DNA of 64,000 bases from Thunnus maccoyii. Taxonomy: Eukaryota > Chordata > Actinopteri > Scombriformes > Scombridae. This document shows positions 1 to 39,970 of the stretch, piece by piece. Made by a program: the position numbers and the translations under genes. Below the pieces are notes generated by a model. It searched no databases and was not told where the DNA came from. It worked only from the letters and a program-made list of their open reading frames with translations. The stretch covers positions 23,968,001 to 24,032,000 of the forward strand of contig NC_056540.1 in assembly GCF_910596095.1 (NCBI RefSeq), read 5' to 3'. Each line of letters begins with the position of its first letter. The stretch's first letter is position 1.

Positions 1-1472
1 TTGATGTAGCAGTAAATCATCTCAGTGAGTTCTTTGGTGATTACCACTACATTGGTGCCAGCAGGTGTTTTATATCTGGGAAATACACAAAGCTCATTCC
101 CGCCTTTGTCTTTTTGTATCTCCCCGTCCTCCTCCGTTAACAGATGGTCGACACTCTTGAAGATGACCTCCATCGACTGGTTGCTTACAGCTTTACACTT
201 GTGATGGAATTTCTTCTTCAGTTGTGTCACCATGCGATGTATCGACGCTTTGGCGACGAGCTTTGCAAAGAAGTTCTTTATAAGGCTGCTCGCTCTTTTC
301 AGAGACACTCTGCCCTTATGTTTGGATGCTCTAATTAAAGTCTTGACCTCACTGGCAATCATTTTAGCAATGTCCTTAGACACAACCTCAATGTCAGAAG
401 AAGTCTCAGACTTCAGCAGCTCATACTCAGAATCTTCTACATCCTGGAAAAGAGGCTCTGTGATGTCATCAACAGCTTTTTCAATGATCTCCTGGACAAC
501 TTTAGCTGTTTCAACCACAAATGGGTCTTGCGGTGACTCCTCCTCAGCTTGTGGCTCCTCCTCGTCTTCTTCCTCCAGATCCGGCAAGACAAATGGGTCT
601 TGTGGTGGCTCTTCCTCAGCTTGTGGCTCCTCCTCCTCCTGTGACTGACAGCTGTCACTGTCATCTTCGTCCTCCGGATCCTGCAAGACAAATGGGTCTT
701 GTGGTGGCTCTTCCTCAGATTGTGGCTCCTCCTCCTCCTGTGACTGACAGCTGTCACTGTCGTCTTCGTCCTCCGGATCCTGCAAGACAAATGGGTCTTG
801 TGGTGGCTCTTCCTCAGATTGTGGCTCCTCCTCCTCCTGTGACTGACAGCTGTCATTGTCATCTTTGTCCCAAAGATCCTTAAAAAATAGCTGTGAGCTG
901 GTCGTCATTTGGGAGGAAGACCGGCTCCCTCTCTTCTGACGTGCTCGGGGTGTACACATTTTTATTTTGCCACATCTTTTCACAAACCTTTTCAACATTT
1001 TTGAGGTGAGGATAATCATATTGTTCAATCTGCTGGGGCGTGTGACGTGCTGGCTTATTCCAGACTCGGTGGTGTTAGCAGCAGAGAGGGCAGAGCTGAC
1101 ACTCTTTGTGACCTCTTTAGCCAGCAAGTTTGTCAGACGTTCAGAGCTGACACACTTGGGTTGGTCCTCCAAGTCCAGAGCTTCAGCAAAGCTCTGACCC
1201 AGTGTGTCGCCCAGTTTTGTCTGAACTTCCTCCTCAGAAATGGTGACACTCCTGTTCTTGAGCGAACCCAAACAGGAGTTTGTCACTGCTTGAATAATTT
1301 CAAGCATCAGCTCAGCAAGAAAGATTTTGGTGGCATTGTCAGGAAAACCGCTTTTCAACAGAGTCCACTGGTCCTCTGTCATCCTGTTAACAAAGGTTTG
1401 GATTGGCGGGCGAAAAATTTCAACTGTGATCTCCAGCATCTCCTTTGAGCAAGAGTTTCCTGTTCTATTCAT
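1..1472 (-). CDS. Intronless unrecognised protein, left palindrome copy (3' end outside window)
   Basis: The start codon is the reverse complement of 1470-1472, and the frame stays open to the window edge for 490 codons. It is the inverted twin of the plus-strand gene at 6034-8328: position 1 corresponds to 7604, and the coding length up to that point differs by exactly 99 bases, one unit of the internal acidic repeat (three units here, four in the other copy). The substitutions I followed keep the frame; for example the early residues read MLEITVEIF here and MLDIRVEIF in the twin. I saw no stop or frameshift in the segments I checked, so this looks like a second functional copy and not a pseudogene. 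The function is unknown. Whether it also ends in the hairpin satellite cannot be seen. Confidence 0.75.
   Translation of the reverse strand, partial: MNRTGNSCSKEMLEITVEIFRPPIQTFVNRMTEDQWTLLKSGFPDNATKIFLAELMLEIIQAVTNSCLGSLKNRSVTISEEEVQTKLGDTLGQSFAEALDLEDQPKCVSSERLTNLLAKEVTKSVSSALSAANTTESGISQHVTRPSRLNNMIILTSKMLKRFVKRCGKIKMCTPRARQKRGSRSSSQMTTSSQLFFKDLWDKDDNDSCQSQEEEEPQSEEEPPQDPFVLQDPEDEDDSDSCQSQEEEEPQSEEEPPQDPFVLQDPEDEDDSDSCQSQEEEEPQAEEEPPQDPFVLPDLEEEDEEEPQAEEESPQDPFVVETAKVVQEIIEKAVDDITEPLFQDVEDSEYELLKSETSSDIEVVSKDIAKMIASEVKTLIRASKHKGRVSLKRASSLIKNFFAKLVAKASIHRMVTQLKKKFHHKCKAVSNQSMEVIFKSVDHLLTEEDGEIQKDKGGNELCVFPRYKTPAGTNVVVITKELTEMIYCYI
557..853 (-). repeat. 99-bp in-frame acidic repeat, about 3 units (left copy)
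   Basis: Coding minisatellite inside the left gene copy. Each unit encodes 33 residues rich in Glu, Asp, Pro and Gln, with the motif QDPFVLQDPEDEDDSD. It has one unit fewer than the right copy, so the copy number changed after the inverted duplication or differed between the progenitor copies. The unit edges are approximate. Confidence 0.75.
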
Positions 1473-1600
1473 GGTGATTGTTATGATGTTTTATCTTCGA
1501 TGCTTGATGATTGATGCTTAATGCGCTCTGTGTACTGCACTGGGCTCAGTTTTCACGTACTAATGTGAAAAGTTAAACACGTCGAATAGACAGAATTGAG

Positions 1601-1610
1601 ATATATACAT
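1601..1610 (-). promoter_or_regulatory. TATA-like box of the left gene copy
   Basis: A TATATAT-type sequence lies about 130 bases upstream of the minus-strand start codon at 1472. It mirrors the TATA-like box at 5898-5907 of the other copy (coordinates sum to about 7506). The motif is seen; its use as a core promoter is inferred. Confidence 0.4.
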
Positions 1611-1647
1611 GTGGTTCTGGGTCTATGAAGGGTACAGTATTTCACAG

Positions 1648-1727
1648 GATCAAAAAAGATCAAAGACGGTCAAAGAAGATCAAAAACGGTCAAAGACGGT
1701 CAAAGAAGATCAAAGACGGTCAAAGGA
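1648..1727 (-). promoter_or_regulatory. 10-bp-phased tandem repeat with TCF/LEF-like cores (left arm)
   Basis: About eight consecutive 10-bp units of the forms GATCAAAGAC and GGTCAAAGAA, just upstream of the left TATA-like box. ATCAAAG matches the TCF/LEF core (A/T)(A/T)CAAAG, and the GTCAAAG units keep the CAAAG core. The period equals about one helical turn, so all cores face the same side of the DNA. The repeat is seen; a regulatory role is inferred. Confidence 0.5.
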
Positions 1728-3122
1728 ACAAAGCCACTGATCTCTATGATGTCACAGATCACAGGAGCCACATTCCATAAACCCCGCCCCAAAGCAGCGA
1801 TTGTTGCTCAGCAACTGTTGCTAAGCGGCTCCAGCACCCTTTGGCAGATTGTGCTGTAGAATTTAGTGTCTTTTTAAAGTCTGAAATGATTTTCAAAGTT
1901 GAAATCAGTTTGATTTGACTTTTTTACTCTCAGTAACAACTGCAGACCAAAAGTAGTGGTTTGGTCTCCCTGACTGATATATTATTATATATGACATCAT
2001 TAGATTATCAATACTGAAGCATCAGTGTGTAAGCAGCATGTTACTGTTGGAGCTGCTGGAGGTGGAGCTAGTTTGAGCTACTTTATATACAGTTAGCTAG
2101 TTCGGTTCAGTGGTTCCCAATCTAGGGGTTGGGCCCCTCCAAGGGGTCACCAGATAAATTTGAGGGGTCGTGAGATGATTAATGGGAGAGAAAAGAAGAA
2201 AAAACAAAACTCTGATACACAAATCTGCTTCCAGTGTTTGGACTTTTCTCTAATCTTTGATTTTTGGGGAAATATTGGATAATTTGAACATTTATTGAAA
2301 TGAAACCATGTAAGAAGTTTAGAGGGAAAAATCACTATTTGGTGGAGTTGGTTACAACTCATAGACGTCTGAAATGTGACCCTGACTACACACTGCTTTT
2401 TGTAAGACATTAAAAGCCAAAAAGGTTGGAAACAAAACTTGTTATATTATCCATTGTGTCAAATCTTCATCTGAAAAGTAACTAAAGCTGTCAAATAAAT
2501 GTAGAAAATAGAAGAGGTGGAAATTATAAAGTAGTATAAAATGGAAATACTCAAGTAAAGTACCTCAAAATTATACTTAAATACATTATTTGATTAAATT
2601 CAATTTACTTTCCAACACTGAAATCACAGACTTTCCTATGAAATGCAACAGGAACAATCTGTATCACATGTTGCTTATTGTGACACACACAGAATGTATT
2701 CACATTTTTTGGTTTGTGTATTTATTTTATTCTGATGTAAAGTTAACTTTATTTTTGGTATTAGAATTCTGTTTATCCATTTTAAATGGATCAGTTTTGT
2801 ATTAGCCATCAAACACACACACACACTGGTGGAAGAAGTACTCAGATCATATACTTAAAAGTAGCAATGCCACAGTTTTAAAGTACTCCATTATAAGTAA
2901 AGTTCCTGCATTCAAAATCCTACTTAAGTAAAAGTAAATAAGTATTATAAGCTAAATGTAGATAAAGTATTCATTCTGCAGTAAAATGTCCCCTGTGACA
3001 TTATTTTATGACATTATAAGATTGTTAATACTGTTGCATCAATGTGTATGCAGCATTTTACTGTTGTTTTACTGTAATAACATACTTTATCAGGGTGTAT
3101 TTAATAAAAAATCATCATAACA

Positions 3123-3332
3123 ACTTCTAGGGCGACATCTGAGTCAGAGAGGAACTTTTCAAAATTGACGAGAATAAAAACTTTCACCCACAATACCATG
3201 GGACAGCCACGACTCAACGCACTGGCCATGCTATCCATCGAAAGCCAGCGGATTCAGCAGCTACAGGACCTCAAGGTGATTGAGAAGTTTGCCCAGAGGA
3301 AAAAACGCCATGCCGCCTTTCTCTTCAAGTGA
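3123..3332 (+). pseudogene. hAT transposase C-terminal fragment (dimerisation region)
   Basis: The conceptual reading includes RATSESERNFSKL, RIKTFTHNT, MGQPRLNALAMLSIE and then IEKFAQRKKRHAAFLFK followed by a stop at 3330-3332. This resembles the hAT C-terminal dimerisation block of ZMYM/P52rIPK-type domesticated and transposon proteins (S-E-x-x-E-R-x-F-S-x-L...RLN-x-L-A-x-L-S-I-E). The catalytic core and BED finger are not visible between the element ends, so it is an inactive remnant. A short ATG-initiated frame exists at 3198-3332, but nothing suggests it is a gene. Confidence 0.65.
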
Positions 3333-4394
3333 GCCCTCAGCTATGGTGAGTGAAAGCTTGTGACAGTAGTAATGTAACTTGTGTAATTGCTCTCCTTCTC
3401 TATCTCTCACTCACTCACTCGCTCACACACACACACACACACATGGACACACAAGGAGAGAGAGAGAGAGAGAGAGTGGCAGCAGGTTAGAGAGTCACAG
3501 AATGGGATAAACAGGGAGTGTCAGGGCAGGGAAGTTGCTGAGGCAGTTGTAACAATATCTTCGTTATTTAGATGTAATTTAATTTAACTTTAATTGATTT
3601 TCAGGAGGCATATTGTTGTTAAATGCATAACTTTATGGGACATGCAGAATTTATGATTTTAGGAGTTTCAGTCTATTGACACCAACAATGGTTTATTCTG
3701 TAGTCACTTGTGCTTCATCTGAAACACTATATTGTCTCCTAACAGGTTGAGAAGACGAAGAGGAGACACAGCAAGAGTGTAAGGAGCAGAGTGTAAGCAG
3801 AGATGTTTTCAAGCCAAACAGCATTTCCTTTGTCACGTGGACTGTGCAACTCGAGTTGAAATTGGTGAACACTTGTAGCACACCCATCCAATTTTTCTTT
3901 TTTTTTGGGGGGGGGGGGGGTACTGCAGTACAAACAGAGAAAACATCTTGAAACTCTGCATCATTTTTGTGGCAGAACATCAAACCACAGTAGAGTAAAG
4001 CAGCCAAACAGCACACATTCTGTACCTACTTAAAACCACAAGAGGTCGCTGTCACAGCACACAACAGCCTATTTCTTCTGTTTGCAGGGTCAATTAACTC
4101 AACTGAGACCTGAAAAATGGAAGAATCTGCTACTCTGATCACCTACTGTCAAACCACCACTGACCTTGTCAAACCACTGATTCCCTGGTCTTCTGATATT
4201 TTGTTTAAATTCTTCTATTTGAAGTTCTTATTCAATTAGCTGTTAAAAGTGTCCTCTGAAAATCAGCAATGTTTCATAAACACAACACAACAAACTAAAA
4301 TGACTGTCTCAGAACTGTCTCCATTTTCTCTGTAATAGATTTGAATTTTCTCAATAATTTTGTTTTGCACAAAATTTGGCTGTGACTGATCTAT
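3333..4394. other. Palindrome spacer, no gene seen
   Basis: Unique sequence between the palindrome arms. It holds CA and GA dinucleotide runs near 3425-3475, a T-run followed by 14 G at about 3907-3920, and short unsupported open frames. I see no gene. Confidence 0.5.
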
Positions 4395-5778
4395 TAAATA
4401 CACCCTTATAAAGTATGTTATTACAGTAAAACAACAGTAAAATGCTGCATACACATTGATGCATCAGTATTAACAATCTTATAATATCATAAAATAATGT
4501 CACAGGGGACATTTTACTGCAGAATGAATACTTTAGCTACATTTAGCTTATAATACTTATTTACTTTTACTTAAGTAGGATTTTGAATGCAGGAACTTTA
4601 CTTATAATGGAGTACTTTGAAACTGTGGCATCGCTACTTTTAAGTATATGATCTGAGTACTTCTTCCACCAGTGTGTGTGTGTGTGTGTGTGTTTGATGG
4701 CTAATACAACACTGATCCATTTAAAATGGATAAATAGAATTCTAATACCAAAAATAAAGTTAACTTTACATCAGAATAAAATAAATACACAAACCAAAAA
4801 ATGTGAATACATTCTGTGTGTGTCACAATAAGCAAAATGTGACACAGATTGTTCCTGTTGCATTTCATAGAAAAGTCTGTGATTTCAGTGTTGGGAAGTA
4901 AATTGAATTTAATCAAATAATGTATTTAAGTATAATTTTGAGGTATTTTACTTGAGTATTTCCATTTTATACTACTTTATAATTTCCACCTCTTCTATTT
5001 TCTACATTTATTTGACAGCTTTAGTTACTTTTCAGATGAAGATTTGACACAATGGATAATATAACAAGTTTTGTTTCCAACCTTTTTGGCTTTTAATGTC
5101 TTACAAAAAGCAGTGTGTAGTCGGGGTCACATTTCAGACGTCTATGAGTTGTAACCAACTCCACCAAATAGTGATTTTTCCCTCTAAACTTCTTACATGG
5201 TTTCATTTCAATAAATGTTCAAATTATCCAATATTTCTCCAAAAATCAAAGATTAGAGAAAAGTCCAAACACTGGAAGCAGATTTGTGTATCAGAGTTTT
5301 GTTTTTTCTTCTTTTCTCTCCCATTAATCATCTCACGACCCCTCAAATTTATCTGGTGACCCCTTGGAGGGGCCCAACCCCTAGATTGGGAACCACTGAA
5401 CCAAACTAGCTAACTGTATATAAAGTAGCTCAAACTAGCTCCACCTCCAGCAGCTCCAACAGTAACATGCTGCTTACACACTGATGCTTCAGTATTGATA
5501 ATCTAATGATGTCATATATAATAATATATCAGTCAGGGAGACCAAACCACTACTTTTGGTCTGCAGTTGTTACTGAGAGTAAAAAAGTCAAATCAAACTG
5601 ATTTCAACTTTGAAAATCATTTCAGACTTTAAGAAGACACTAAATTCTACAGCACAATCTGCCAAAGGGTGCTGGAGCCGCTTAGCAACAGTTGCTGAGC
5701 AACAATCGCTTCTTTGGGGCGGGGTTTATGGAATGTGGCTCCTGTGATCTGTGACATCATAGAGATCAGTGGCTTTGT

Positions 5779-5859
5779 TCCTTTGACCGTCTTTGATCTT
5801 CTTTGACCGTCTTTGACCGTTTTTGATCTTCTCTGATCTTCTCTGATCTTCTTTGATCC
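5779..5859 (+). promoter_or_regulatory. 10-bp-phased tandem repeat with TCF/LEF-like cores (right arm)
   Basis: Mirror of the array at 1648-1727. Units read CTTTGACCGT, CTTTGATCTT and the variant CTCTGATCTT at 10-bp spacing, about 40-120 bases upstream of the right TATA-like box. Some CAAAG cores present in the left copy are mutated here and the reverse, so the arrays have begun to diverge. The function is inferred only. Confidence 0.5.
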
Positions 5860-5897
5860 TGTGAAATACTGTACCCTTCATAGACCCAGAACCACAT

Positions 5898-5907
5898 GTA
5901 TATATCT
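5898..5907 (+). promoter_or_regulatory. TATA-like box of the right gene copy
   Basis: TGTATATATC lies about 130 bases upstream of the ATG at 6034, mirrored in the left arm. This spacing would give a 5' UTR of roughly 100 bases. Confidence 0.45.
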
Positions 5908-6033
5908 CAATTCTGTCTATTCGACGTGTTTAACTTTTCACATTAGTACGTGAAAACTGAGCCCAGTGCAGTACACAGAGCGTATTAAGCATCAATCATC
6001 AAGCATCGAAGATAAAACATCATAACAATCACC

Positions 6034-8328
6034 ATGAATAGAACAGGAAACTCTTGCTCAAAGGAGATGCTGGACATCAGAGTTGAAATTTTTCGCCCGC
6101 CAATCCAAACCTTTGTTAACAGGATGACAGAGGACCAGTGGACTCTGCTGAAAAGCGGTTTTCCCGACAATGCCACCAAAATCTTGCTAGCTGAGCTGAT
6201 GCTTGAAATTATTCAAGCAGTGACAAACTCCTGTTTGGGTTCGCTCAAGAACAGGAGTGTCACCATTTCTGTGGAGGAAGTTCAGATCACACTGGGCGAC
6301 ACACTGGGTCAGAGCTTTGCTGAAGCTCTGGACTTGGAGGACCAACCCAAGTGTGTCAGCTCTGAACGTCTGACAAACTTGCTGGCTAAAGAGGTCACAA
6401 AGAGTGTCAGCTCTGCCCTCTCCGCTGATAACACCGCTGAGTCTGGAACCAGCCAGCATGTCACACGCCCCGGCAGATTGAACAACATGATCACTCACAC
6501 CTCAAAAATGTTGAAAAGGTTTGTGAAAAGATGTGGCAAAATAAAAATGTGCACACTCCGAGCACGTCAGAAGAGAGGGAGCCGGTCTTCCTCCCAAATG
6601 ACGACCAGCTCAGAGCTATTTTTTCAGGATCTTTGGGACAAAGATGACAATGACAGCTGTCAGTCACAGGAGGAGGAGGAGCCACAATCTGAGGAAGAGC
6701 CACCACAAGACCCATTTGTCTTGCAGGATCCGGAGGACGAAGACGACAGTGACAGCTGTCAGTCACAGGAGGAGGAGGAGCCACAAGCTGAGGAAGAGCC
6801 ACCACAAGACCCATTTGTCTTGCAGGATCCGGAGGACGAAGACGACAGTGACAGCTGTCAGTCACAGGAGGAGGAGGAGCCACAAGCTGAGGAAGAGCCA
6901 CCACAAGACCCATTTGTCTTGCAGGATCCGGAGGACGAAGATGACAGTGACAGCTGTCAGTCACAGGAGGAGGAGGAGCCACAAGCTGAGGAAGAGCCAC
7001 CACAAGACCCATTTGTCTTGCCGGATCTGGAGGACGAAGACGAGGAGGAGCCACAAGCTGAGGAGGAGTCACCGCAAGACCCATTTGTGGTTGAAACAGC
7101 TAAAGTTGTCCAGGAGATCATTGAAAAAGCTGTTGATGACATCACAGAGCCTCTTTTCCAGGATGTAGAAGATTCTGAGTATGAGCTGCTGAAGTCTGAG
7201 ACTTCTTCTGACATTGAGGTTGTGTCTAAGGACATTGCTAAAATGATTGCCAGTGAGGTCAAGACTTTAATTAGAGCATCCAAACATAAGGGCAGAGTGT
7301 CTCTGAAAAGAGCGAGCAGCCTTATAAAGAACTTCTTTGCAAAGCTCGTTGCCAAAGCGTCGATACATCGCATGGTGACACAACTGAAGAAGAAATTCCA
7401 TCACAAGTGTAAAGCTGTAAGCAACCAGTCGATGGAGGTCATCTTCAAGGGTGTCGACCATCTGTTAACGGAGGAGGACGGGGAGATACAAAAAGACAAA
7501 GACGGGAATGAGCTTTGTGTATTTCCCAGATATAAAACACCTGCTGGCACCAATGTAGTGGTAATCACCAAAGAACTCACTGAGATGATTTACTGCTACA
7601 TCAAATATGGGAACATGATGCCGGAAATCATTCCAGAGGCCATGAGGAGGAAGGCGGTGGCTGTTCCTCAGGTTGATGCTGCCATGTATGAGGACATACG
7701 CAAGAAAGTCCGCTGTTTCCTGGCTCTCATCAACTGGTGGCAGAAAACCCAGGCTGCCAGCCACTCCGACAGAGTCACACTGGCGTTACAACACCCTGAG
7801 TCACTGTCACAGACACAGTCAGCAGAGGTCAAGGCAGAGGAGGAGCAGGAATCTTTGACACCTACTGCTGTGGCAACCTCTGAAACTGAGGAGACACAAT
7901 CTCGGTCTTCACAGGAACTTGCGAAGAGAAAAGAGATGTCAGTCCTATTCCTCGTGGAAAGGCTGGTTTCTCGAGTCTATAACAAGGCCAAGGTGAAGTG
8001 GACCGTATCACAGCCAGAGGTCATCATCCGGCGTCTCTTCCGGAGGATATGGGCCGAAGTCGAGGAAGTAAAATTAACAATAACCCCAGACACATTTGAA
8101 AAACTCGACAAGGCCGTGTTCAAAGACTTGGCGAAGGAGTGGGGCTGTGCAGAGAATGTGTTGATTTTGATGATTTCAGAGGACCCGGACATGGAAGAAT
8201 TCTTGACTTCCTCTTTCTGCCGGCACCTTGTGACGAAGAAAGGGAATGCCATCACCAGGTTCTTCTCTGCGATGGGAAGAGCTCTCTCCAGGACCTTCAG
8301 ACGGACACACAGGGTTGGGGTTATGTAG
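6034..8328 (+). CDS. Intronless 764-residue protein, family not recognised (right copy)
   Basis: One uninterrupted frame from ATG 6034 to TAG 8326-8328. I do not recognise the family. Visible architecture: residues 1-150 are mainly amphipathic helix with no signal peptide; 160-190 are basic; 207-338 are four acidic 33-residue repeats (SCQSQEEEEPQAEEEP with QDPFVLQDPEDEDD) plus a partial unit; 355-425 are helical with LLKSETSSDIEVVSKDIA; 430-480 are strongly basic and Lys/Arg-rich; 480-580 form a possible globular region; 590-640 are Ser/Thr/Glu-rich linker; 645-764 form a second helical region ending in a basic tail. Short helical motifs of the form E-V-x-x-x-V/L-x-x recur along the protein. 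The stop codon is the first TAG of the downstream satellite, so the natural C-terminus may once have been different. No membrane segment or enzyme motif is visible. A fish-restricted, multicopy, perhaps germline-expressed gene is a guess from its intronless palindromic context. Confidence 0.7.
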   Translation: MNRTGNSCSKEMLDIRVEIFRPPIQTFVNRMTEDQWTLLKSGFPDNATKILLAELMLEIIQAVTNSCLGSLKNRSVTISVEEVQITLGDTLGQSFAEALDLEDQPKCVSSERLTNLLAKEVTKSVSSALSADNTAESGTSQHVTRPGRLNNMITHTSKMLKRFVKRCGKIKMCTLRARQKRGSRSSSQMTTSSELFFQDLWDKDDNDSCQSQEEEEPQSEEEPPQDPFVLQDPEDEDDSDSCQSQEEEEPQAEEEPPQDPFVLQDPEDEDDSDSCQSQEEEEPQAEEEPPQDPFVLQDPEDEDDSDSCQSQEEEEPQAEEEPPQDPFVLPDLEDEDEEEPQAEEESPQDPFVVETAKVVQEIIEKAVDDITEPLFQDVEDSEYELLKSETSSDIEVVSKDIAKMIASEVKTLIRASKHKGRVSLKRASSLIKNFFAKLVAKASIHRMVTQLKKKFHHKCKAVSNQSMEVIFKGVDHLLTEEDGEIQKDKDGNELCVFPRYKTPAGTNVVVITKELTEMIYCYIKYGNMMPEIIPEAMRRKAVAVPQVDAAMYEDIRKKVRCFLALINWWQKTQAASHSDRVTLALQHPESLSQTQSAEVKAEEEQESLTPTAVATSETEETQSRSSQELAKRKEMSVLFLVERLVSRVYNKAKVKWTVSQPEVIIRRLFRRIWAEVEEVKLTITPDTFEKLDKAVFKDLAKEWGCAENVLILMISEDPDMEEFLTSSFCRHLVTKKGNAITRFFSAMGRALSRTFRRTHRVGVM
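6652..7047 (+). repeat. 99-bp in-frame acidic repeat, 4 units
   Basis: Units begin at 6652, 6751, 6850 and 6949, each exactly 99 bases, followed by a degenerate partial unit up to about 7090. Near-identity between units suggests recent homogenisation. The antisense strand is also open across this region, which creates spurious open frames. Confidence 0.9.
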
Positions 8329-9520
8329 GGGGGATGGGTAGCCTTCATCTTGAAGGGAAAAAGTGAGCCCGGATTACTTTTTTCCTTCAAGATGAACGCA
8401 GGGGGTTCTTTAGGGGGTGGGTAGCCTTCATCTTGAAGGGAAAAAGTGAGCCCAGATTACTATTTTCCTTCAAGATGAATGCAGGGGGTTATTTAGGGGG
8501 GTGTGTAGCCTTCAAGTTGAAGGGAAAAAGTGAGCCCGGATTACTTTTTTCCTTCAAGATGAACGCGGGGGGTTCTTTAGGGGGGTGGGTAGCCTTCATC
8601 TTGAAGGGAAATAGTGAGCCCAGATTACTTTTTTCCTTCAAGATGAATGCAGGGGGTTATTGAGGGGGGTGTGTAGCCTTCAACTTGAAGGGAAAAAGTG
8701 AGCCCGGATTACTTTTTTCCTTCAAGATGAACGCGGGGTGTTCTTTAGGGGGGTGGGTAGCCTTCAACTTGAAGGGAAAAAGTGAGCCCGGATTACTTTT
8801 TTCCTTCAAGATGAATGCAGGGGTTTTTTTAGGGGGGGGTGGCTAGCCTTCATCTTGAAGGGAAAAAGTGAGCCCAGATTACTTTTTTCCCTTCAAGATG
8901 AATGCAGGGGTTTTTTAGGGGGGGGTGGCTAGCCTTCATCTTGAAGGGAAAAAGTGAGCCCGGATTACTTTTTTCCTTCAAGATGAATGCAGGGGGTTCT
9001 TTAGGGGGGTGTGTAGCCTTCAAGTTGAAGGGAAAAAGTGAGCCCGGATTACTTTTTTCCTTCAAGATGAACGCGGGGTGTTCTTTAGGGGGGTGGGTAG
9101 CCTTCAACTTGAAGGGAAAAAGTGAGCCCAGATTACTTTTTTCCTTCAAGATGAATGCAGGGGGTTCTTTAGGGGGGTGGGTAGCCTTCAACTTGAAGGG
9201 AAAAAGTGAGCCCGGATTACTTTTTTCCTTCAAGATGAATGCAGGGGTTTTTTAGGGGGGGGTGGCTAGCCTTCATCTTGAAGGGAAAAAGTGAGCCCGG
9301 ATTACTTTTTTCCTTCAAGATGAATGCATGGGTTCTTTAGGGGGTGGGTAGCCTTCATCTTGAAGGGAAAAAGTGAGCCCAGATTACTTTTTTCCTTCAA
9401 GATGAATGCAGGGGTTTTTTAGGGGGGGGTGGCTAGCCTTCATCTTGAAGGGAAAAAGTGAGCCCGGATTACTTTTTTCCTTCAAGATGAATGCAGGGGG
9501 TTATTTAGGGGGTGGGTAAT
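8326..9520. repeat. Satellite of 14 hairpin-forming units of 82-87 bp
   Basis: The array starts within the stop codon of the 764-residue gene. Fourteen copies of the core GTGAGCCC(G/A)GATTACTTT can be counted. In a typical unit TTCATCTTGAAGG plus an A-rich stretch pairs with a T-rich stretch plus CCTTCAAGATGAA, giving about 21 near-perfect stem pairs around an 11-base loop (GAGCCCGGATT). In several units the left arm is changed to CAACTT or CAAGTT, which weakens the stem. G-runs of 5-7 separate the units. Many units are 84 bp (28 codons), so long spurious frames arise on both strands. The unit resembles a tandemly amplified small inverted-repeat element. Confidence 0.9.
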
Positions 9521-9529
9521 CAATAAATT

Positions 9530-10450
9530 CAATTCAATAAAAAACATTCAACAAAAGTGTTTAAATTCAACATCACTTTTCATATTATTTGCAGTCAAAG
9601 CTCTAAATATTAGAAGCATGTTTTGTCTTGTTGTGTTAATCCTGTAATGTCATCAATGGTATTACGTTCTGTCTTGTCTTGTATCAATTCTTTTGATCAT
9701 CTCAAAACAAAAAGAGTCTTCTTCCATTTTGCAATACATCTGATCTGGTATGTTTTTTGTGTTAACTCTATTAGATATACAATTTATTAAAGGGTGTATC
9801 TCCTGTACTGTTTTATTCAGTCCTGTCTTTTACAAGGTAACTTGTCATGTGTATATATTTATACTGTTGCCTTACCAACAGAAATAAAAATACAAACTGA
9901 TCTGAAAACATTTAATGAAAAGGTGAAACATTGGCTGAAACAAAACCAAACCTGCGATCATTGACCTATGATCATGTCCATGTGCATGTGTGCATGCACA
10001 TGGACATGTATACATAGATAGAGGAACAGATACATATAGATAAACATACATGCACTGATATAGATTATGAATGTATGTACACGGACACATACACCTATAA
10101 ATACTATGCATATATATACACATCATTGCCATGAATTAGGGAACATACACATTCACACACATATGCAACACATGTAAATTGATTGTTACGTGATGTAAAT
10201 ACTGTTGCTATTGAGAATGTCACTATTTATTATTTATTAAATTATTTAAATAATGTCTTTCTGGTAGTGATATGTTATGACTATTTTAAGTAAAAAAGCC
10301 TAACCAGGGACAGGGGTCGCAAATTAGCCTTGGCTGGAAATCATATATGCAACACATCTGTTTCATGTTATTTTAACCTGTTACAACGTTTTTTGCATCA
10401 TCCCTGAGAAATAAACTAATAAATAAAAATAAATAAATAAAAAAAAGTGT
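9530..10450 (+). mobile_element. Possible 3' tail of a LINE retrotransposon
   Basis: Non-coding AT-rich sequence that ends with phrasing typical of fish LINE 3' ends: ACCAGGGACAGGGGTCGC, then CAAATTAGCC, CATCCCTGAG, and an (AAAT)n-like tail at about 10405-10445. No reverse-transcriptase frame is visible. The left boundary is arbitrary, directly after the satellite. The clade (L2, Rex or L1 type) is not resolved. Confidence 0.4.
9973..10008. repeat. Perfect 16-bp inverted repeat, 4-base loop
   Basis: The arms are 9973-9988 and 9993-10008 with loop TGTG, inside the presumed LINE tail and next to ATG/CAT-rich simple sequence. It may be only a consequence of low complexity. Confidence 0.6.
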
Positions 10451-10790
10451 GAATTTTGAGGTACTTGTACTTTACTTTAAATTTCAGAGGGAAATATTGT
10501 CCTTTCTACTCCAATATATTTATTTGACAGTTCAAGTTAGTTTTCAGATGAAGATGTGACACAATGGATAATATAACAAGCTTTTAAAATAGAGCATATT
10601 GTTAAAGATGAAACCAGTGGATGAAACCAGTGGCGTTTGACGTCTGACAGAAAGCAGTGTGTAGTTGGGGTGACATTACAGATGTCTATGAGTTGTTAAC
10701 AGCTCCACCAAATAGTGATTATTCCCTCTAAACTTCTCACATGGTTTCATTTCAATAAATGTTCAGTCCAATATTCTTGCAAAACCGGAC
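10450..10790 (+). repeat. Diverged copy of the repeat tail found in both palindrome arms
   Basis: Similar to about 4931-5220 and inverted to about 2290-2580. Shared phrases include GATGAAGATNTGACACAATG, ATAATATAACAAG and CCACCAAATAGTGATT. It belongs to the teleost hAT-like repeat family characterised by AGTACTTGAGTAAATGTA ends. Confidence 0.6.
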
Positions 10791-10811
10791 AGGAAAAGAA
10801 TATATGGGTGT

Positions 10812-10875
10812 GGTTGTATGTATGTATGTATGTATGTATGTGAGTCTGTATGTATGTGTACAGAATGTATGTATG
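10812..10875 (+). repeat. (GTAT)n microsatellite
   Basis: Imperfect run of TATG/GTAT tetranucleotides, directly after the sequence that forms the empty-site paralogue of the hAT insertion at 11284-13474. Confidence 0.8.

Positions 10876-30990: not shown

Positions 30991-39970
<8,980 letters not shown>

What the first reader, a model, noticed from the sequence alone, without database searches (positions are those of the whole stretch)
1..7604. Inverted-duplicated intronless gene pair in a 7.6-kb palindrome
Two divergent, near-identical copies of a single-exon gene with no recognised family lie on arms of about 3.1 kb separated by about 1.29 kb. Both frames appear open, and the arm difference inside the coding region is exactly one 99-bp in-frame unit. 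In other animals such palindromes with single-exon genes are often germline-amplified families kept similar by gene conversion. This is the best candidate here for an undescribed locus.
Basis: partly seen in the sequence, partly recalled or inferred. Interest (0 to 1): 0.8.

Follow-up and report, generated by a model that had tools for sequence, protein, structure and literature searches.

The report
Fish gene family with repeated stem-loops
The mirror-image gene pair is real and both copies are intact; they belong to an unnamed multi-copy gene family, probably of a fish, most of whose members share a promoter motif known from sperm and cilia genes and a stem-loop behind the gene that was found in this genome only beside this family.

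Summary
The palindrome is real. In the window, arms 1-3106 and 4392-7604 are 98.2% identical around a 1,285-bp spacer; with the flanking genome they are about 5.6 and 6.5 kb. Both copies are complete single-exon frames (731 and 764 aa). It is not a lone locus: the same 782-Mb assembly (probably a ray-finned fish) holds at least 18 intact single-exon family members on 8 chromosomes, none with a Pfam match. Arm-to-arm gene conversion is supported: synonymous divergence is 0.095 in codons 1-200 but 0.012 in the rest, while an outgroup copy shows no such excess. (1) An RFX-type X-box motif 290-630 bp before the ATG in 13 of 18 members. (2) A stem-loop after the stop codon in 11 of 18, 10-14 nt behind it in six; its exact 21-nt arm occurs 54 times in the genome, all 54 downstream of family members or their remnants, and is amplified into arrays (about 5, 14 and 56 units by length). 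Best reading: a fast-evolving, probably sperm- or cilia-expressed family whose mRNA carries a cis-acting stem-loop. Expression, protein function and stem-loop function are untested.

The parts
6034..8328 (+). Right gene copy (C8R), single-exon ORF, 764 aa
1..1472 (-). Left gene copy (C8L), the part inside the window; the whole ORF is 731 aa and runs on for about 723 bases left of the window
1..3106 (-). Left palindrome arm (continues to about -2480 outside the window)
4392..10854 (+). Right palindrome arm (matched within the window to 7604; with the left flank to about 10854)
3107..4391 (.). Spacer between the arms; its right part (from about 3921) matches the upstream region of paralogue C8b, so the right copy probably keeps the older arrangement
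5681..5703 (+). Paired RFX-type X-box sites of the right copy (perfect palindromic site 5691-5703)
1803..1825 (-). Paired RFX-type X-box sites of the left copy (perfect site 1803-1815)
5716..5724 (+). GC box GGGGCGGGG, right copy
1782..1790 (-). GC box, left copy
5750..5759 (+). CRE-like TGTGACATCA; the core TGACATC is in 10 of 10 aligned nearer members (motif name recalled)
6636..7043 (+). 99-bp (33-aa acidic) coding repeat, about 4 units, right copy
565..870 (-). Same coding repeat, about 3 units, left copy
8317..9518 (+). 84-bp tandem array, about 14 units, overlapping the last 12 bases of the ORF; the units carry the H1 stem-loop
8342..8396 (+). First H1 stem-loop, about 14 nt after the stop codon
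9522..9527 (+). First AATAAA after the stop, directly behind the array

Best explanation
The pair is a young inverted duplication within a multigene family of rapidly evolving, mostly helical, single-exon proteins of unknown fold. SHOWN by sequence: at least 18 intact members on 8 chromosomes; the ten nearer ones share upstream DNA with the promoter, so they spread as DNA segments; coding constraint in most pairs compared; arm-to-arm gene conversion; an X-box-type motif upstream in 13 of 18; a family-specific stem-loop behind the stop codon in 11 of 18, amplified in some copies. INFERRED: RFX factors (with a CRE-binding factor) drive the genes in spermatids and/or ciliated cells; the first AATAAA lies beyond the last stem-loop, so the transcript carries it; there it works in cis, binding a protein that controls mRNA storage, stability or translation, and amplification changes the number of binding sites. 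The palindrome itself is a by-product of segmental duplication that raises copy number and lets conversion homogenise the copies.
For: Family. Upstream homology of about 1.2-2.2 kb between nearer members on different chromosomes. Constraint: 15 of 17 chosen pairs have dN/dS below 1 (0.29-0.84). Conversion: arm dS 0.095 (codons 1-200) vs 0.012 (201-764), outgroup dS 0.127-0.132 vs 0.185-0.189; clustering P 0.0004; changes in codons 1-200 split 13 right / 12 left / 2 unresolved. X-box: the perfect site occurs twice in the window and in none of 100 shuffles; paired sites in 10 of 10 nearer members, the first site in 3 of 3 C11 copies. RFX2 motifs cluster near the TSS of RFX2 targets in mouse spermatogenesis: PMC4498915, passages. 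Stem-loop: 31 of 31 exact genomic matches of the two-armed pattern and 54 of 54 of its 21-mer lie on the sense strand 3' of family members or remnants, 0 for the reversed control pattern (I assigned them from the coordinates); 2 of 25 consensus pairs are changed on both sides and kept; 83% identical over 63 nt between C8R and C11a, whose best local coding alignment is 66% identical; first AATAAA beyond the last stem-loop arm in 11 of 11 members that have it.
Against: No expression, transcript or protein data were available. 7 of 18 members (C12 x2, C17 x4, C13) lack the stem-loop and 5 of 18 (C17 x4, C13) lack the X-box, so neither defines the whole family; many of the counted members are recent duplicates of each other, so the counts are not independent. 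The X-box pattern was chosen after seeing it; for the nine members with 11 of 12 matching positions 0-5 of 60 shuffles did as well, and in C11 the second site is broken. A genome-wide count of the X-box did not complete. Only two stem pairs covary, three are broken in one or two of seven versions, and DNA-level repeat homogenisation could mimic covariation. dN/dS exceeds 1 for C5a/C5b and C5b/C5c (5 and 6 changes). For the window part of the pair, a permutation gives only P 0.07 for the synonymous excess. The longest difference-free run in the arms is not unusual (P 0.19). The structure models are too poor to give a fold.
Confidence: 0.55

Rival explanations
1. The tandem stem-loops are hairpin-RNA precursors: the transcript tail folds into double strands that Dicer cuts into siRNAs which silence the family itself (as in an arms race in the male germline).
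For: The structure resembles the tandem hp-CG4068 hairpins of Drosophila (20 copies in D. melanogaster, 9 in D. simulans; passages of PMC10317233); copy number varies strongly here too (about 5, 14 and, by length, 56 units); one unit with flanks folds with z -2.67, 0 of 200 shuffles as good.
Against: No exact match of the 21-nt arm lies outside the family's own 3' regions (54 of 54), and no 13-mer of the C8-type stem is in any of 18 coding sequences or the 3 kb before them. Stems of 20-25 bp are short for long-dsRNA Dicer processing (recalled). Six members carry the first stem-loop 10-14 nt after the stop, which fits a cis element better.
Confidence: 0.15
2. The stem-loop is a small palindromic transposon (MITE) that happened to land behind the genes, and the array is ordinary satellite growth without function.
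For: Inverted repeats of this size resemble MITE ends (recalled); other members have other array types at this spot (141, 53, 26 bp and others), so the spot is prone to repeat growth.
Against: A MITE family would be dispersed; 31 of 31 and 54 of 54 exact genomic matches lie behind family members or remnants and in the same orientation. It stands 10-14 nt after the stop in both the C8 and the distant C11 group. Mismatched copies were not counted.
Confidence: 0.15
3. The inverted pair is an assembly artefact (uncollapsed alleles joined head to head).
For: Identity of 98% is in the range of divergent alleles.
Against: Divergence is patchy with an 8-fold contrast in dS, the two arrays differ in length, a 1,285-bp spacer without N separates the arms, the region lies inside a 35-Mb contig, and a second inverted family pair lies on C5.
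Confidence: 0.06
4. Dispersed non-functional copies (retrocopies or pseudogenes) with accidental long frames.
For: Single-exon, multi-chromosome pattern; broken copies exist (C4, C8 left of the palindrome, C19:9.73M, C23:14.03M, C13:22.19M).
Against: 18 intact frames of 546-888 aa, dN/dS below 1 in 15 of 17 chosen pairs, shared upstream and promoter DNA among the ten nearer members.
Confidence: 0.07

Closest known systems
Ampliconic/palindromic testis genes of mammalian sex chromosomes (PMC3723533, PMC3403216; only the starts of the abstracts seen)
   Same: Inverted arms with an intact multi-copy gene and arm-to-arm gene conversion
   Different: Arms of about 6 kb and 98% identity rather than above 99.9%; sex linkage unknown; family spread over 8 chromosomes; no relation of the genes shown
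Drosophila hairpin-RNA loci such as hp-CG4068 (PMC10317233, passages)
   Same: Tandem arrays of hairpins in one presumed transcript, with rapid change of copy number
   Different: Behind a protein-coding gene; the exact 21-nt arm matches nothing outside the family in this genome; siRNAs not tested
Histone mRNA 3' stem-loop and other family-specific 3'-UTR stem-loops (recalled)
   Same: A stem-loop at a short distance after the stop codon, shared by members of a multi-copy intronless gene family
   Different: Longer stem, other sequence, amplified into arrays, followed by AATAAA; in the window Rfam matches at gathering threshold are four microRNAs only
RFX2 target genes of spermiogenesis (PMC4498915) and other RFX targets (PMC5838959); passages
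   Same: X-box-type motif in the proximal upstream region
   Different: Binding, expression and TSS not tested

Membership tests
Palindromic ampliconic gene with arm-to-arm conversion | Inverted arms of high identity carrying intact gene copies | tested here: met
   98.2% in 3,106 sites, two intact ORFs
Palindromic ampliconic gene with arm-to-arm conversion | Gene conversion between arms | tested here: met
   Mosaic dS not mirrored against the outgroup; clustering P 0.0004 in a 550-bp scan
Palindromic ampliconic gene with arm-to-arm conversion | Testis expression and sex-chromosome linkage | not testable with these tools
RFX target gene | X-box motif upstream, kept in relatives | tested here: met
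   13 of 18 members (paired sites in 10, first site in 3 C11 copies); 5 of 18 lack it
RFX target gene | RFX binding and RFX-dependent expression | not testable with these tools
   Needs ChIP or mutants
hpRNA locus | Arms complementary to a separate target gene | tested here: not met
   Exact 21-mer found only in the family's 3' regions, 54 of 54; no 13-mer of the C8-type stem in 18 coding sequences; imperfect targets not sought
hpRNA locus | Dicer-dependent 21-22-nt siRNAs | not testable with these tools
   No small-RNA data
MITE | Dispersed copies in the genome | tested here: not met
   31 of 31 and 54 of 54 exact matches lie behind family members or remnants; mismatched copies not counted
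Any Pfam family / solved structure | Profile match | tested here: not met
   0 of 18 members at E 0.01; best PDB hit of the family profile E 0.25, 34 positions of a globin, taken as chance

The most novel reading that the evidence does not exclude
A fish gene family carries its own private 3'-UTR stem-loop, better conserved than its coding sequence in the pairs compared and found nowhere else in the genome as an exact match, and individual copies have amplified it into arrays of about 5 to 56 units; the arrays act as a copy-specific dial (protein sponge or self-silencing double strand) in the male germline, so that expression of each duplicate evolves through hairpin number.
Probability: 0.3. 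Interest if true: 0.75.

Novelty: new variant of a known kind. Interest (0 to 1): 0.55.

Why it matters
Multi-copy, fast-evolving genes with an RFX-type promoter are candidates for sperm or cilia functions and for conflict between gene copies. Here close paralogues differ strongly in the number of a private stem-loop (about 5, 14 and, by length, 56 units of 84-85 bp), a natural dose series that would make the effect of 3'-UTR hairpin number on gene expression directly testable.

Tried and rejected
Viral or phage origin: no relative in viral contigs (5 stretches matched a pattern, none confirmed) or phages. Named family: Pfam none at the curated cut-offs, PDB none. Internal tandem domains (blocks A-D of the protein): not shown; of six pairs only C-D gave P 0.012, not corrected for six tests, and the B-C score is an overlap of my own cuts. 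Structure: single-sequence AlphaFold2 gave mean pLDDT 40.8 and 53.3 for the last 135 residues; I made no fold search on these. I did not send the family alignment to the structure tool, because its stated rule does not list loci from the genome search or the fetch from genomes. A hAT-like reading of the spacer frame 3198-3332 is recalled only; Pfam gave no match at E 10. Import of the divergent N-terminal patch from a third paralogue: disfavoured, as its changes are shared evenly between the arms (13/12/2). Papers: in the listings I recognised no paper on this family; passages were seen of PMC5838959, PMC4498915, PMC7368989 and PMC10317233, the rest as listings. The gene has no name to search by, so absence from print is not shown. 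No genome of a related fish was available.
Full report
OBSERVATION. The inverted repeat is real: arms 1-3106 and 4392-7604, spacer 1,285 bp, 56 substitutions in 3,106 aligned sites (98.2%), no N in the window. The left arm is cut by the window edge. The window is C8:23,968,001-24,032,000 of an assembly of 782,140,779 bases in 54 contigs. With the left flank the arms reach about -2480 and 10854 in window coordinates. Both copies are complete single-exon frames, 731 and 764 aa. The longest stop-free frame in 1,000 simulated sequences of like composition was 369 codons. Neighbours are MCM7-type exons with mir-17, mir-19 and mir-25 family hits, STAG-type cohesin exons and a frame I take for actinodin from recall; that the host is a ray-finned fish is my inference from these.

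THE FAMILY. A search of the whole assembly with the 764-aa protein gave 50 matches. I fetched 20 regions and found 18 intact ATG-to-stop frames of 546-888 aa, counting both window copies, on 8 chromosomes: C8 (3), C12 (2), C5 (3), C19, C7, C11 (3), C17 (4), C13. Identity to the right copy runs from 97 to 23%. Broken copies or fragments lie among others on C4, C8 (left of the palindrome), C19, C23 and C13. Searches with the C13 and C17 proteins added pieces at C17:6.03-6.04 Mb and C16:15.77 Mb and an unexamined 694-codon frame at C17:25.51 Mb, so 18 is a lower bound. No member matches Pfam at E 0.01 (0 of 18); the family profile has no credible PDB match (one at E 0.25).

DUPLICATION AND SELECTION. 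The ten nearer members (C8, C12, C5, C19, C7) share about 1.2-2.2 kb of upstream DNA across chromosomes, with gaps, so they spread as DNA segments, not as mRNA copies. In the same comparison no upstream match joined the C11, C17 or C13 members to these ten. The spacer from about 3921 matches the upstream region of paralogue C8b, so the right copy probably keeps the older arrangement and the left is the inverted addition. A second inverted pair exists on C5 (C5a/C5b; 97.7-99.6% in the long pieces); the C12 pair, the C11 trio and the C17 trio are in direct orientation. I computed dN/dS for 17 chosen pairs: 15 are below 1 (0.29-0.84); C5a/C5b and C5b/C5c exceed 1 on 5 and 6 changes. For the window pair it is 0.42 (16 synonymous, 25 nonsynonymous, 731 codons). 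For the part inside the window it is 0.38 (Fisher P 0.013), but a permutation that keeps the kinds of change gives only P 0.07 for the synonymous excess.

GENE CONVERSION. Arm-to-arm differences are uneven: 27 of 600 sites in codons 1-200, 5 of 872 in the rest of the shared coding region of the window, 24 of 1,634 upstream. The densest 550-bp stretch holds 26 differences, P 0.0004; the width was chosen after seeing the data, and the longest difference-free run is not unusual (P 0.19). Over the full genes dS is 0.095 in codons 1-200 and 0.012 in 201-764. Against the outgroup C8b the same regions give 0.127-0.132 and 0.185-0.189, so the first region is not a mutation hot spot. Its changes are shared evenly (13 right, 12 left, 2 unresolved). 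The simplest account is that conversion has homogenised the rest while codons 1-200 keep older divergence.

PROMOTER. Each window copy has a perfect palindromic X-box-like site GTTGCTGAGCAAC 343 bp before the ATG (5691-5703; 1803-1815 on the other strand), the only two matches in the window, none in 100 shuffles, followed by a GC box. The pattern was chosen after reading the sequence. In the alignment of the ten nearer members the paired sites (CCTAGCAAC or CTTAGCAAC, then a second site) are present in 10 of 10, in varied form, and the core TGACATC of a CRE-like site in 10 of 10; C5 a-c and C7 have the GC box in a changed form and C19 lacks it. The 13-mer GGTGCCTAGCAAC of C5 and C7 recurs in all three C11 copies at -507 to -628; there the second site is broken, and TGTGACGTAA follows. 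The four C17 copies and C13 lack the motif. With 12 of 12 matching positions (C8 x3, C19) 0-1 of 60 shuffles did as well, with 11 of 12 (nine members) 0-5 of 60. RFX2 motifs cluster near the TSS of RFX2 targets in mouse spermatogenesis (PMC4498915, passages). The names X-box and CRE for these letters are partly recalled.

STEM-LOOP. Behind the right stop codon lies an 84-bp array (8317-9518, about 14 units), behind the left copy about 5 units, behind C8b an array of 4.7 kb, about 56 units by length (6463574-6468297; 25 exact 5' arms). The units contain an inverted repeat; one unit with flanks folds with z -2.67, 0 of 200 shuffles as good. The same stem-loop (H1) follows the stop in 11 of 18 members: at 10-14 nt in C8R, C8L, C8b and C11 a-c, about 39 in C19, 193 in C7, 618-759 in C5 a-c; C12 x2, C17 x4 and C13 lack it. 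Seven different versions give a consensus of 25 pairs: two have a change on both sides that keeps pairing (one is C-G to G-C in C19), three are broken in one or two versions. H1 is 83% identical over 63 nt between C8R and C11a, whose best local coding alignment is 66% identical; C8R and C17d show no match there. In the whole genome the two-armed pattern has 31 exact matches and its 21-nt arm 54; the reversed control has 0. By my comparison with the coordinates, all 31 and all 54 lie 3' of a family member on its sense strand; two of the 54 stand behind the broken C4 copy and behind a short C23 fragment with a weak match (E 2e-5). Copies with mismatches were not counted. The first AATAAA is beyond the last stem-loop arm in 11 of 11 members, in C8b only after 5,020 nt; other polyadenylation signals were looked at only for the right copy. 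So the stem-loop belongs to the genes and probably to their 3' UTRs. Members without H1 have other repeats there (26-bp in C17, about 422-bp in C12), and C5, C7 and C19 carry a second inverted repeat.

MECHANISM. I take the family to be germline or ciliated-cell genes driven by RFX factors, with an mRNA stem-loop acting in cis on storage, stability or translation, and amplified by slippage in some copies. Shown: gene copies, conversion, motif and stem-loop conservation and genomic specificity of exact matches. Inferred: expression site, transcript end, stem-loop function. The siRNA rival is weakened because no exact 21-nt match lies outside the family and no 13-mer of the C8-type stem is in any of 18 coding sequences, but self-directed silencing and imperfect targets are not excluded. 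Tandem hairpins of variable number are known from Drosophila hp-CG4068 (PMC10317233, passages).

LIMITS. One genome, unnamed species, no RNA, no related fish. The members counted include recent duplicates, so k-of-18 counts are not independent. Structure models were too poor to use. A genome-wide count of the X-box did not complete.

Noticed in passing
window 3198-3332 (+): 44-codon frame in the palindrome spacer that resembles the C-terminal end of a hAT transposase (recalled; no Pfam match), between inverted ends near 2826 and 4674 that look like hAT-type termini (by eye).
   Followed up: partly
window 31946-32790 (-): mir-17 (two), mir-19 and mir-25 family microRNA hits between MCM7-type exons.
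   Followed up: no
C5:27,945,958-27,984,033: A second, nested set of inverted repeats with three intact family copies, 97.7-99.6% identical in the long pieces.
   Followed up: partly
C8:6,463,574-6,468,297: 84-bp stem-loop array of about 4.7 kb (about 56 units by length) behind copy C8b; the first AATAAA after its stop is at 5,020 nt.
   Followed up: partly
L019, L022, L013, regions behind the stop codons: Other members have different tandem arrays behind the stop (53, 26 and 141 bp units), some with TTAGGGG-like runs (by eye); the 3' end of the family seems prone to repeat birth.
   Followed up: no
C5, C7, C19 copies, 53-374 nt after the stop: A second inverted repeat (AGAGCTTCAGTCCTGCC with its near-complement) different from H1.
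   Followed up: no
window -2957 to -2543 (L009): A 415-bp piece 98% identical to 4277-4691 lies within about 60 bases of the outer end of the left arm, as if another duplication unit began there.
   Followed up: partly
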